From assembly GCF_002285285.1 (NCBI RefSeq), contig NZ_NSJF01000002.1, forward strand, positions 186,001 through 250,000: a stretch of 64,000 nt of DNA. Direction: 5' to 3'. Made by a program: the position numbers and the translations under genes. Positions 51,500-59,864 of the stretch are shown one piece after another. The notes below the pieces were generated by a model. The model was not told where the DNA came from, searched no databases, and worked only from the letters and a program-made list of their open reading frames with translations. Position 1 is the first letter of the stretch. Every line of letters starts with the position of its first letter. Source of the DNA: Vandammella animalimorsus. GTDB lineage: Bacteria > Pseudomonadota > Gammaproteobacteria > Burkholderiales > Burkholderiaceae_C.

Positions 51500-51589
51500 T
51501 GGCGGAGAGGGAGGGATTCGAACCCTCGGTAGGCTTGCACCTACGCCTGATTTCGAGTCAGGTACATTCGACCACTCTGCCACCTCTCC
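51500..51589 (-). tRNA. tRNA-Ser(CGA), intact copy
   Basis: A 90-base type II tRNA with an encoded CCA end. GGAGAGG pairs fully with CCTCTCC, the anticodon stem loop CTGACTCGAAATCAG gives anticodon CGA, and a long variable arm follows (TAGGTGCAAGCCTA). It reads UCG codons. A second copy at 59407-59496 lacks the matching acceptor end, so this copy is the functional one and marks the left end of the island. Confidence 0.95.
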
Positions 51590-51954
51590 TGGAACTGGTT
51601 GCATGCGGTGCAAGCGCGCGATTCTAGCAGAGGAATTCTGCGGCGGCGGCTTTCAGGCCAGGGCCTGGCGCATGCGTGCGATCACGTCCGCATAGCTGGG
51701 GGCGTTGAAGATGGCGCTGCCGGCCACGAAGGTGTCGGCGCCGGCATCGGCGATGCGGCGGATGTTCTCGGGCTTGACGCCGCCGTCGATCTCCAGGCGG
51801 ATGTCTTTGCCGCAGGCGTCGATGCGCTTGCGTGCCTGTTCGAGCTTGCGCAGGGCCGAGTCGATGAAGCTCTGGCCGCCAAAGCCGGGGTTGACGCTCA
51901 TGATGAGGATCAGGTCCAGATCGTCGATGACCCAGTCGAGCACGTCCAGCGGCG
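51507..51954. repeat. Island-flanking direct repeat, left copy (tRNA-Ser + rpe 3' fragment)
   Basis: About 448 bases matching 59414-59864 at roughly 97% by eye. The match covers most of tRNA-Ser, a 60-bp spacer and 303 bases of the rpe 3' end. Differences include about ten substitutions and one 3-base insertion near 51648. The match stops inside rpe just after the VLDWVIDDLDLI codons and at the acceptor stem of the tRNA. Confidence 0.9.
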
Positions 51955-51955
51955 C
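51653..51955 (-). pseudogene. Truncated rpe (C-terminal 100 codons)
   Basis: Encodes the C-terminal part of ribulose-5-phosphate epimerase (LDVLDWVIDDLDLILIMSVN to the stop) but loses homology upstream at about 51955. The frame stays open to 52123 with unrelated residues, so no active epimerase is made. The intact gene is at 59563-60255, with scattered silent and few coding differences, showing that the two are not a very recent copy. Confidence 0.9.
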
Positions 51956-52380
51956 GCGGCCCAAGTCTAGGCCAAAACTACGCCGCCCATGCACCACTCC
52001 GGGGTGAGCGGCGCTCTCCACAAGGATCAATGGGTAGGCCGCAGGGTAAACCAGATGCAGCCCCCCCCCATCCATGCGGCACGAAAGAGGCACTTGCGAC
52101 CTCCATGTACTGATCGTCGGCACGGCCGCGTAGCCAGTACTGCACCTCTTCCCTTCGCGCTACCCCTCGCCGGCCCGGCGATGACCAGGGGGGCATACAC
52201 CCCTGCTCACCCACATCCTGTAGGAGGGCGATCCACCTCTGCACCCCACAGACGATGGATACGTGCAGATACAAATTCGTTTTTTTCCGACGGCGTTGTC
52301 CGCGCCTGTTTCCCCGTTATCTCATGTGGCCCGCGAATTTCTCGCCTGAACACACATAACCATAGGAGCTAACACGAATC
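51955..52380. other. Island left end, no supported gene
   Basis: This 426-bp stretch has no gene I can support. A minus-strand frame (51978-52274) encodes REEVQYWLRGRADDQYMEVA, which looks protein-like, but it has no recognisable domain or ribosome-binding site and may be a remnant. A ribosome-binding site AGGAG at 52364-52368 belongs to the next gene. Confidence 0.35.
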
Positions 52381-52767
52381 ATGGAATATTCATTCTCAAT
52401 CACTCAGTCCTTCTGCGCGGCGAATGAAGGAATTTGCAACAAGGCGTATCTTGGATATCTTCCCTGGTCGGCTATGACAGAACCGGCAGCCTGCGCATCG
52501 CCGAAGAAACAGACGATTAACCAAGACCAATTCACCCTCTCCCTGCAAACCGCCTGCCTCATGCAGCAGAACCAGATGCTCGAGCGGCAAAACGCCATGC
52601 TGCGCGATCTCATGGAGCGCGTGGAGACGGTAGGCGACCGACTGTGGCACATGGAACGCTGTCTCACTACCCCGCCGATCGATCAGGCCGGGATGCGCAA
52701 GCGAGTAGCCAAGAAGCGCCGTCCGGCCCACATGCAATCTGTAGCTCGCACGCGCTCAGATAAGTAG
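52381..52767 (+). CDS. Unknown coiled-coil protein of the island
   Basis: A 128-residue protein. After an unremarkable N-terminus, residues about 55-95 form a coiled coil (QTACLMQQNQMLERQNAMLR, DLMERVETVGDRLWHMERCL), and the C-terminus is strongly basic (KRVAKKRRPAHMQS). A DNA- or RNA-binding tether is possible. AGGAG lies 12 bases before the ATG at 52381; MTEPAAC at codon 32 is an alternative start. No family is recognised. It precedes the RepA-like gene by 144 bp. Confidence 0.55.
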   Translation: MEYSFSITQSFCAANEGICNKAYLGYLPWSAMTEPAACASPKKQTINQDQFTLSLQTACLMQQNQMLERQNAMLRDLMERVETVGDRLWHMERCLTTPPIDQAGMRKRVAKKRRPAHMQSVARTRSDK

Positions 52768-52911
52768 TCATGCCCTAAAGCGGTGGGGGCTCCGGCCCCC
52801 GTCTATCTGCATGTCGCAGGGCGCTCACGCGCCAATCCACCGATGGCCGGAGGAGGCAAGGCAACTGCTTGCTCCTCTCACCGCGTCCTGCGCATGCCCA
52901 ACTAACAATCA

Positions 52912-58537: not shown

Positions 58538-58544
58538 GGGCACC

Positions 58545-58835
58545 ATGACCATCAACAACATAGCGAAAAGATACCTCCTCGTGCCACTCTGCATGATCGC
58601 AATGGCCTGGATGGGGGAGGCCATGGCGGGCACCTCGGAGTGCTACGCGATCAAGGATACGGACAAGCGTGCGTACTGTCTGGCGCAGGTCAAGCGGAAC
58701 CCTGGGAATTGCTATCGCATCAAGGATTGTGACAACCGCAATCAGTGTCTGGCGGAAATCAAAGGATCACGGGACCGCTGCTATGCCATCAAAGACCAGG
58801 ACAGCCGCAAGGCGTGCCTCTCAAGGGCCCGATAA
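58545..58835 (+). CDS. Secreted protein with three CYxIKD repeats
   Basis: A 96-residue precursor. A signal peptide ends at EAMA-GTSE (about 28), and the mature part is three tandem units: CYAIKDTDKRAYCLAQVK, CYRIKDCDNRNQCLAEIK and CYAIKDQDSRKACLSRAR. Each has the form C-Y-x-I-K-D-x-D-x-R-x-x-C-L, giving paired Cys suited to one disulphide per repeat. It follows the membrane-anchored gene and may act with it at the cell surface. The start at 58545 is set by the signal peptide. Confidence 0.72.
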   Translation: MTINNIAKRYLLVPLCMIAMAWMGEAMAGTSECYAIKDTDKRAYCLAQVKRNPGNCYRIKDCDNRNQCLAEIKGSRDRCYAIKDQDSRKACLSRAR

Positions 58836-59406
58836 AGCCCTCTCCTCCAAGTTGGTGGGCAGAGCCAAGCGCAGAGCGTACTGAGGCTGCGAGAAAAGGC
58901 TTGGTCACTGGCACTATAAAGTCTACCCCGAGCTACTCGCACTTGCCATGCCAGAACTGTAAGACCGTCCGCTAGGAACATCGCCAGAGCACAAGGTGCT
59001 GCATGCCCATGTATCTGACGACGCTATTCTGCTGGCTCGGAGCCGACGTAGCGATACCGCCGCCATGCATCAAACACTCTGAATGAGGCATCTACGGTGC
59101 GCAACGTTCTCCCCACAAATACGGTCGGCTGGGTCTCCGCGATATTGAACGGGCGCCGCACCTGGCCGTAAATGCAAACAATGCTGTGCAGATCACCCGC
59201 GAAAGACTGGGTCAGTACTCACAAGCCGTAAACGAGACGCACATTGCCATCATGCAAGGTGTGTGTGCGGCAGGCTGGAAATGAAAAAGCCTCAGCTAAC
59301 TGCTAGACAGCAAGGCCCCGTGTCTCAGCGAACTCGTCGCTGCGATAGATAGAGCGGAAGGTAGAAATGCAAAACGGGCCACTCGGGCCCGTCTGACATG
59401 AATACT
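58836..59406. other. Island right end, mostly non-coding
   Basis: A 571-bp stretch with no full gene. A frame without a start codon (59087-59284) reads GRLGLRDIERAPHLAVNANN then VQITRERLGQYSQAVNETHI and ends GVCAAGWK, which looks like the C-terminal end of a decayed gene. A terminator hairpin ACGGGCC/GGCCCGT (59374-59392) lies just before the tRNA-Ser copy. Confidence 0.4.
59374..59392 (-). terminator. Hairpin at the end of the right tRNA-Ser copy
   Basis: ACGGGCC and GGCCCGT form a 7-bp stem with a 5-base loop; on the minus strand it is followed by TTTT. It would end transcription of the altered tRNA-Ser copy. Confidence 0.55.
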
Positions 59407-59496
59407 TGCAGTGGAGGGAGGGATTCGAACCCTCGGTAGGCTTGCACCTACGCCTGATTTCGAGTCAGGTACATTCGACCACTCTGCCACCTCTCC
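59407..59496 (-). pseudogene. tRNA-Ser(CGA) copy with damaged acceptor end
   Basis: Identical in its body to the intact copy at 51500-51589, including anticodon CGA and variable arm, but the last bases read CCTCCAC-TGCA in place of CCTCTCC-GCCA. Two acceptor-stem pairs (2-71, 3-70) are lost and there is no CCA. The change starts at 59413, the exact edge of the island repeat. It is probably not a working tRNA. Confidence 0.8.
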
Positions 59497-59864
59497 TGGA
59501 ACTGGTTGCATGCGGTGCAAGCGCGTGATTCTAGCAGAGGAATTCTGCGGAGGCAGCGGCTTTCAGGCCAGGGCCTGGCGCATGCGTGCGATCACGTCCG
59601 CGTAGCTGGGGGCGTTGAAGATGGCGCTGCCGGCCACGAAGGTGTCGGCGCCAGCATCGGCGATGCGGCGGATGTTCTCGGGTTTGACGCCGCCGTCGAT
59701 CTCCAGGCGGATGTCTTTGCCGCAGGCGTCGATGCGCTTGCGCGCCTGTTCGAGTTTGCGCAGGGCTGAGTCGATGAAGCTCTGGCCGCCAAAGCCGGGG
59801 TTGACGCTCATGATGAGGATCAGGTCCAGATCGTCGATGACCCAGTCGAGCACGTTCAGCGGCG
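59414..59864. repeat. Island-flanking direct repeat, right copy
   Basis: Matches 51507-51954 at roughly 97% by eye and is three bases longer (GGAGGCAGCGGC against GGCGGCGGC just past the rpe stop). It continues without a break into the rest of rpe, so it belongs to the intact gene. Confidence 0.9.

What the first reader, a model, noticed from the sequence alone, without database searches (positions are those of the whole stretch)
51507..59864. Island flanked by ~450-bp repeats covering tRNA-Ser and part of rpe
Typical tRNA-targeted islands duplicate only the tRNA end. Here most of the tRNA, a spacer and 100 codons of rpe are repeated at about 97% identity with a 3-base indel, so one copy was probably carried in from a related host. 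Either integrase-mediated entry with captured flanking DNA or recombination within rpe is possible.
Basis: partly seen in the sequence, partly recalled or inferred. Interest (0 to 1): 0.75.

Follow-up and report, generated by a model that had tools for sequence, protein, structure and literature searches.

The report
Island carrying its own tRNA front
An 8-kilobase DNA island splits a bacterial serine tRNA gene and has at one end a copy of the neighbouring rpe gene's tail plus the tRNA's front, a piece that likely came from an earlier host and is predicted to keep the tRNA working, while the tRNA copy at its other end lacks the proper 3' end.

Summary
The repeats are real: 51507-51954 (A) and 59414-59864 (B), 9 substitutions over 448 shared positions plus a 3-base gap. 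A related genome (G006) has the empty site. Only copy A's tRNA-Ser(CGA) is intact; copy B, beside the full rpe gene, has a wrong 3' end (Rfam 60.4 against 46.6 bits). The usual layout is reversed: the island supplies the tRNA's front with a promoter-like box, not its 3' end. It is not a one-off. I found 14 loci with this broken right end, most in Comamonadaceae. The other side is visible in 11, and 10 of those show an intact second tRNA (counter-case: G375). The stretch before that tRNA ends in serS, in rpe or elsewhere, and in G317 and G236 includes a bestrophin-like gene. At three loci it is foreign; in Paracidovorax valerianellae copy A is 96.5% identical to another species' locus, copy B 81.9%. 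Five related loci, three with integrases 92-94% identical, keep an intact tRNA at the right end. Integration at the 5' side of tRNA genes is known (Zhao and Williams 2002, seen only as a citation). A long host-derived piece that moves between species looks like a new variant. Excision, crossover point and tRNA expression are untested.

The parts
51500..51589 (-). Intact tRNA-Ser(CGA), copy A side, with encoded CCA; predicted working gene
   Evidence: ARAGORN; Rfam tRNA 60.4 bits; 7 of 7 acceptor pairs
51507..51954 (-). Copy A of the repeat: rpe codons 132-230, spacer with -10-like TAGAAT, tRNA front
51956..51984 (-). Stretch next to rpe' that resembles the serS junction of the G019 element (22 of 29 bases); read as a relic of an older serS piece
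   Evidence: inference
52025..52048 (-). Left-end pair of arm-like repeats (TACCC, 12 bases apart)
   Evidence: role as integrase arm sites is inferred
51955..59413 (.). Island proper, absent from G006
52381..52767 (+). Small protein of unknown function (128 aa)
   Evidence: relatives
52912..54546 (+). AAA_25 ATPase, helicase-like matches in PHROGs
54848..55177 (-). HTH regulator
55201..55698 (+). DUF1643 protein
56032..56277 (+). Small protein (81 aa), unknown, conserved next to the integrase
56283..57617 (+). Tyrosine integrase (Arm-DNA-bind_3, Phage_int_M, Phage_integrase)
57614..58537 (+). Protein of unknown function (307 aa)
   Evidence: relatives
58500..58835 (+). Protein of unknown function (111 aa), cysteine-rich repeats by eye
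59343..59413 (-). Right end of the island: sequence following the broken tRNA, with a GC hairpin and T run like a terminator; conserved in relatives
59408..59497 (-). Broken tRNA-Ser(CGA), copy B side: two acceptor pairs fail, no CCA
59414..59864 (-). Copy B of the repeat
59563..60255 (-). Complete rpe (ribulose-phosphate 3-epimerase)

Best explanation
The island is likely an integrative element of the reversed tRNA-targeting kind: it carries the front of tRNA-Ser(CGA) with its promoter and the tail of the upstream gene, so that insertion would rebuild a working tRNA at its left end (copy A), while the tRNA at its right end (copy B) lacks the proper 3' end. Shown: one intact and one broken tRNA, the empty site in G006, the same broken right end at 13 further loci, and foreign DNA in copy A at three of them. 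Inferred: (1) the integrase recombines within the tRNA, in the part shared by both copies; (2) because the right end brings no tRNA 3' end, an insertion without the carried piece would destroy the tRNA, which selects for carrying the front; (3) the piece was picked up when the element's left end became joined to chromosomal DNA upstream of a tRNA gene in an earlier host, probably by aberrant excision or other illegitimate joining; (4) in this lineage an older serS piece was replaced by rpe, which is what lies before the tRNA here; (5) copy A came from a sister lineage of this species.
For: Only copy A's tRNA has a full acceptor stem and CCA. Empty site in G006. 14 loci with the broken right end; 11 with the other side visible, 10 of these with an intact second tRNA. 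Copy A foreign in L148 (96.5% to G433's locus, copy B 81.9% to it), in G316 (serS piece 95.2% to G019's serS, own serS not among its four best matches) and in G236 (bestrophin-like gene beside copy A, while its own serS side and relative G305 lack it there). A -10-like hexamer in the carried stretch in 10 of 11 stretches scanned. In the five loci with an intact tRNA at the right end, one tRNA-Ser gene was called in each stretch held. Arm-like repeat pairs at the ends in many of the loci.
Against: In G375 the second tRNA copy has lost its first 62 bases, so it cannot rescue anything. In G048 the right copy keeps only bases 52-83 of the tRNA. In G317, G375 and L146 copy A is nearest to the own host (96.8, 98.1, 97.6%), so local duplication, gene conversion or within-species movement also happens. 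In this window copy A is nearest to copy B, and flank identities do not separate host from carried DNA. No excision or expression data. The serS-like relic is the best of six comparisons and two other comparisons that pointed to it were near chance.
Confidence: 0.72

Rival explanations
1. A circle with captured rpe-tRNA DNA entered by ordinary homologous recombination somewhere inside the 448-base stretch, not by the integrase in the tRNA. The part of copy B next to the island would then be carried DNA and part of copy A host DNA.
For: 448 bases of near identity are ample for homologous recombination, and the final layout is the same.
Against: In L148 and G316 copy A up to its island junction is the foreign copy, as expected for a crossover at or near the tRNA; an integrase with conserved arm-like repeats is present in the element. 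In this window nothing separates the two.
Confidence: 0.15
2. The duplication arose on the spot: an element inserted and broke the tRNA, and unequal exchange between sister chromosomes then joined the island's left end to the upstream gene, restoring the tRNA. Copy A would never have left this host.
For: Copy A is nearest to the own host in G317, G375 and L146 and to copy B here.
Against: Foreign copy A in L148, G316 and G236. Here the free-to-decay copy A has 1 unique change and the functional copy B 6, with 6 of 7 coding differences at third positions (small numbers).
Confidence: 0.12
3. Assembly duplication.
For: None beyond the existence of the repeat.
Against: The copies differ at 9 positions and by a 3-base gap; the layout recurs in genomes held in one or two contigs (G316, G317, G043).
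Confidence: 0.01

Closest known systems
[quoted passage not shown]
   Same: The displaced tRNA copy is the 5' one and the intact gene lies at the opposite end of the element from the usual layout; PMC6563490 (passages)'-distal recombination considerably less frequent.
   Different: Here a long upstream stretch (measured repeats 110-1273 bases) with the end of a protein gene, sometimes a whole gene, is duplicated or carried as well, and differs from host to host. I could not read the 2002 paper, so how far it described such flanks is not known to me.
tRNA-dependent lysogeny (PMC10865867, abstract and passages)
   Same: The short shared core does not rebuild the tRNA on one side, so the element must compensate for the broken gene.
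   Different: Those phages bring a separate complete tRNA gene; this element is predicted to rebuild the host gene as a hybrid at its left end. No phage structural gene was found here.
Classical tRNA genomic islands (Islander, PMC4383910, abstract and passages)
   Same: Tyrosine integrase, tRNA target, restored tRNA plus a displaced partial copy marking the ends.
   Different: The displaced copy is an almost full tRNA with a foreign 3' end plus upstream DNA, not a short 3' fragment. Relatives with integrases 92-94% identical (G012, G110, L145) keep an intact tRNA at the right end.

Membership tests
Tyrosine-integrase tRNA genomic island | Tyrosine integrase gene inside the island | tested here: met
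   56283-57617, three Pfam integrase domains
Tyrosine-integrase tRNA genomic island | Insertion splits a tRNA gene; empty site in a relative | tested here: met
   G006
Tyrosine-integrase tRNA genomic island | Usual orientation: element supplies the 3' end, a 3' fragment is displaced | tested here: not met
   The copy beside the complete rpe lacks the proper 3' end; the intact tRNA lies at the other end
Reversed (5'-side) tRNA-targeting element | Intact tRNA at one end, 5' copy displaced at the other, element supplies the front | tested here: met
   Sequence layout here and at related loci; that the element supplies it is inferred here and shown by foreign sequence at L148, G316 and G236
Reversed (5'-side) tRNA-targeting element | Integrase-catalysed crossover inside the tRNA | not testable with these tools
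   Needs excision or integration assay
tRNA-dependent lysogeny | Separate element-encoded tRNA of the same isotype | tested here: not met
   ARAGORN finds only the two repeat copies between 51500 and 59497
Prophage | Capsid, tail or packaging genes | tested here: not met
   None among eight island proteins in Pfam, PHROGs, NCBIfam; short ORFs were not scanned

The most novel reading that the evidence does not exclude
A family of integrative elements carries in its attachment site a swappable slice of host chromosome (tail of the upstream gene, sometimes a whole gene, tRNA promoter and tRNA front) that is refitted to whatever stands before the tRNA in each host, serS' having been replaced by rpe' here, so that every jump shuttles a piece of the last host's chromosome and one integrase clade switches between rebuilding the tRNA from its 3' side and from its 5' side.
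Probability: 0.35. Interest if true: 0.75.

Novelty: new variant of a known kind. Interest (0 to 1): 0.55.

Why it matters
Islands in tRNA genes are usually located by a displaced tRNA fragment. This family leaves long upstream duplications and a nearly complete false tRNA that a tRNA finder still calls, so island borders and tRNA gene counts can be misread. It also offers a route by which host genes beside tRNAs (here a bestrophin-like gene and the ends of serS and rpe) travel between species, and a case in which closely related integrases sit in elements with opposite ways of keeping the tRNA whole.

Tried and rejected
An integrase-specific secondary site in serS as the cause of the shared left junction (near serS codon 400 in G019, G110, G316, G317, G375 and L146): the bases before the junction look like the tRNA T-loop in several loci by eye, but other junctions lie near serS codon 425 (G048), in rpe (this window) and outside serS (L148, at a short shared CCCACGCG). 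Common descent of one old capture explains the shared junction as well, so I left this as an idea.

Papers that describe this arrangement: searches (listings) and passages of four papers showed none with a long host-derived stretch; the library lacks Zhao and Williams 2002 and most subscription papers, so this is not a claim that it is unpublished.

Not classed: G112, G171, G211, G224 and G389 (5 of the 17 right-end hits). Of the 21 loci, 13 were analysed; L149 and L155 are G002 and G110, read through their G handles; L156-L161 were not analysed. Three of the 14 broken-end loci (G172, G002, L147) do not show the other side in the DNA held.

Rejected: assembly artefact; prophage; defence island (PADLOC gave HTH-regulator hits and one weak ATPase hit only).

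Full report
What is there. The window holds two copies of one stretch, 51507-51954 (A) and 59414-59864 (B), in the same orientation, with 9 substitutions over 448 shared positions and a 3-base gap. Both include tRNA-Ser(CGA) and the end of rpe. Copy B belongs to the complete rpe gene 59563-60255; copy A has only codons 132-230. The repeat ends inside the tRNA acceptor stem. In copy A the stem is complete, CCA is encoded and a terminator-like hairpin follows. In copy B two of seven acceptor pairs fail and CCA is missing. ARAGORN still calls both; Rfam gives 60.4 bits for A and 46.6 for B.

Empty site. The related genome G006 has a single rpe and tRNA-Ser there and no island: window 51300-51954 and 59414-60400 map onto one continuous stretch. 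Of the 10 genus genomes searched, 3 (G000, G006, G008) have rpe directly beside this tRNA. G002, in the same genus, has the contig length and integrase position of Lampropedia puyangensis, so the window probably comes from that genus (inference).

The island. Between the copies lie a small unknown protein, an AAA_25 ATPase with helicase-like matches, an HTH regulator, a DUF1643 protein, another small unknown protein, a tyrosine integrase and two unknown proteins. No capsid or packaging family was hit among these eight proteins.

Same layout elsewhere. The right-end sequence was found in 17 of 399 family genomes: 10 with a broken tRNA (G000, G002, G019, G043, G048, G172, G236, G316, G317, G375), 2 with an intact tRNA (G012, G275), 5 not classed. 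The integrase search led to G110 (intact), and the scan of named genomes to L146, L147, L148 and L154 (broken) and L145 and L151 (intact), read. So 14 loci have the broken end, L147 and L154 at tRNA-Ser(GGA). The other side is visible in 11, and 10 of these have an intact second tRNA. The exception is G375, whose second copy lost the first 62 bases of the tRNA. In G048 the right copy itself is reduced to bases 52-83. In G172, G002 and L147 the other side is not in the DNA held. Measured repeats: 448 bases (this window), 245 (G019), 1273 (G317, with a whole bestrophin-like gene), 110 exact (G316), 146 (G375), 117 (G043), 614 (L148), 225 and 123 (L146). In each of the five loci with an intact tRNA at the right end, one tRNA-Ser gene was called in the stretch held; those stretches may not reach the far end.

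Is the carried piece foreign? In Paracidovorax valerianellae (L148) copy A is 96.5% identical over 568 bases to the locus of G433, which in the 3.7 kb held has one intact tRNA with serS 670 bases upstream; host copy B is 81.9% identical to that locus, and A and B are 81.6% identical. In G316 the serS piece in A is 95.2% identical to G019's serS, and G316's own serS is not among its four best matches. In G236 copy A is preceded by a bestrophin-like gene, while its own serS lies directly by the broken tRNA; relative G305 has serS beside the tRNA without that gene, and in G144 and G366 such a gene lies elsewhere. A serS piece between two elements in G110 is nearest to G048's serS (88.5%). Against a purely foreign origin: in G317, G375 and L146 the piece is nearest to the own host (96.8, 98.1, 97.6%), and none of the other 6 genomes in G317's genus has the bestrophin-like gene there at the DNA level searched. 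So within-species movement, gene conversion or local duplication must also occur.

This window. A and B share 5 positions against both G006 and G008; 6 differences are unique to B, 1 to A, 2 are ambiguous, and the 3-base insertion is in B; 6 of 7 coding differences are at third codon positions. This fits two functional rpe lineages that parted before A became a fragment, but the numbers are small. Identities to G006 (rpe front 97.2, trpD side 94.7, A 96.9, B 95.1) and to G008 (rpe front 93.4, A 97.1, B 95.3) do not separate host from carried DNA. Next to rpe' a 29-base stretch matches the G019 serS junction at 22 positions, a score above all of 500 shuffles; in five other comparisons the best match was the arm repeat (three) or the same stretch at near-chance scores (two). 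I read it as a relic of an older serS piece.

Mechanism (inferred). Insertion within a tRNA breaks it unless the element brings the missing part. In this family the right end does not bring the 3' end, but the left end brings the front with a -10-like hexamer (10 of 11 stretches scanned). The hybrid at the left end is therefore predicted to be the working gene. The integrase tree mixes both right-end types among integrases at least 91% identical to this one, with weak support, so elements may have switched type. How the piece is picked up is open: the junction in L148 sits at a short shared CCCACGCG, which suggests illegitimate joining, while the same serS junction in six loci suggests one old capture with later exchange.

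Known kinds. Recombination at the 5' side of tRNA genes is known but less frequent (PMC6563490, passages, citing Zhao and Williams 2002). tRNA-dependent lysogeny meets the same problem with a separate phage tRNA (PMC10865867, abstract and passages). The long, exchangeable, species-crossing host piece is what I regard as the new variant.

Noticed in passing
L064:2887-3828 and 14891-15832; L068:617-1555: A bestrophin-like gene (name recalled from its sequence, no family search run) is duplicated with the tRNA front in G317 and sits on the copy-A side in G236: a whole host-type gene in the carried stretch.
   Followed up: partly
L154 and L147: Relatives with integrases 85-86% identical sit at tRNA-Ser(GGA) instead of tRNA-Ser(CGA), again with the broken right end.
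   Followed up: partly
L107 (G110), L066 (G316), L038 and L076 (G012): Signs of tandem elements at the same tRNA: a serS piece between two element ends in G110, an additional tRNA 3' fragment in G316, two integrases in G012.
   Followed up: no
L041 position 1 (G008): The G008 contig begins exactly at the 3' end of this tRNA-Ser, as expected if a repeat or another element lies there.
   Followed up: no
L146:12542-12596: Acidovorax defluvii has an extra tRNA-Ser 5' fragment (bases 1-55) between serS and the broken copy, perhaps the scar of an older insertion.
   Followed up: no
window 58500-58835: A cysteine-rich repeat protein without a match in Pfam, PHROGs, NCBIfam or PADLOC is kept in many of these elements and duplicated in some (L143, L147, L154).
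   Followed up: no
window 54556-54606: Perfect 19-base inverted repeat with a 13-base loop just after the ATPase gene.
   Followed up: no
L037:10097-10911 and L066:11570-12475: Proteins with a PEP-CTERM-like tail (recalled motif) lie beside the left end in G019 and G316 and share their last part.
   Followed up: no
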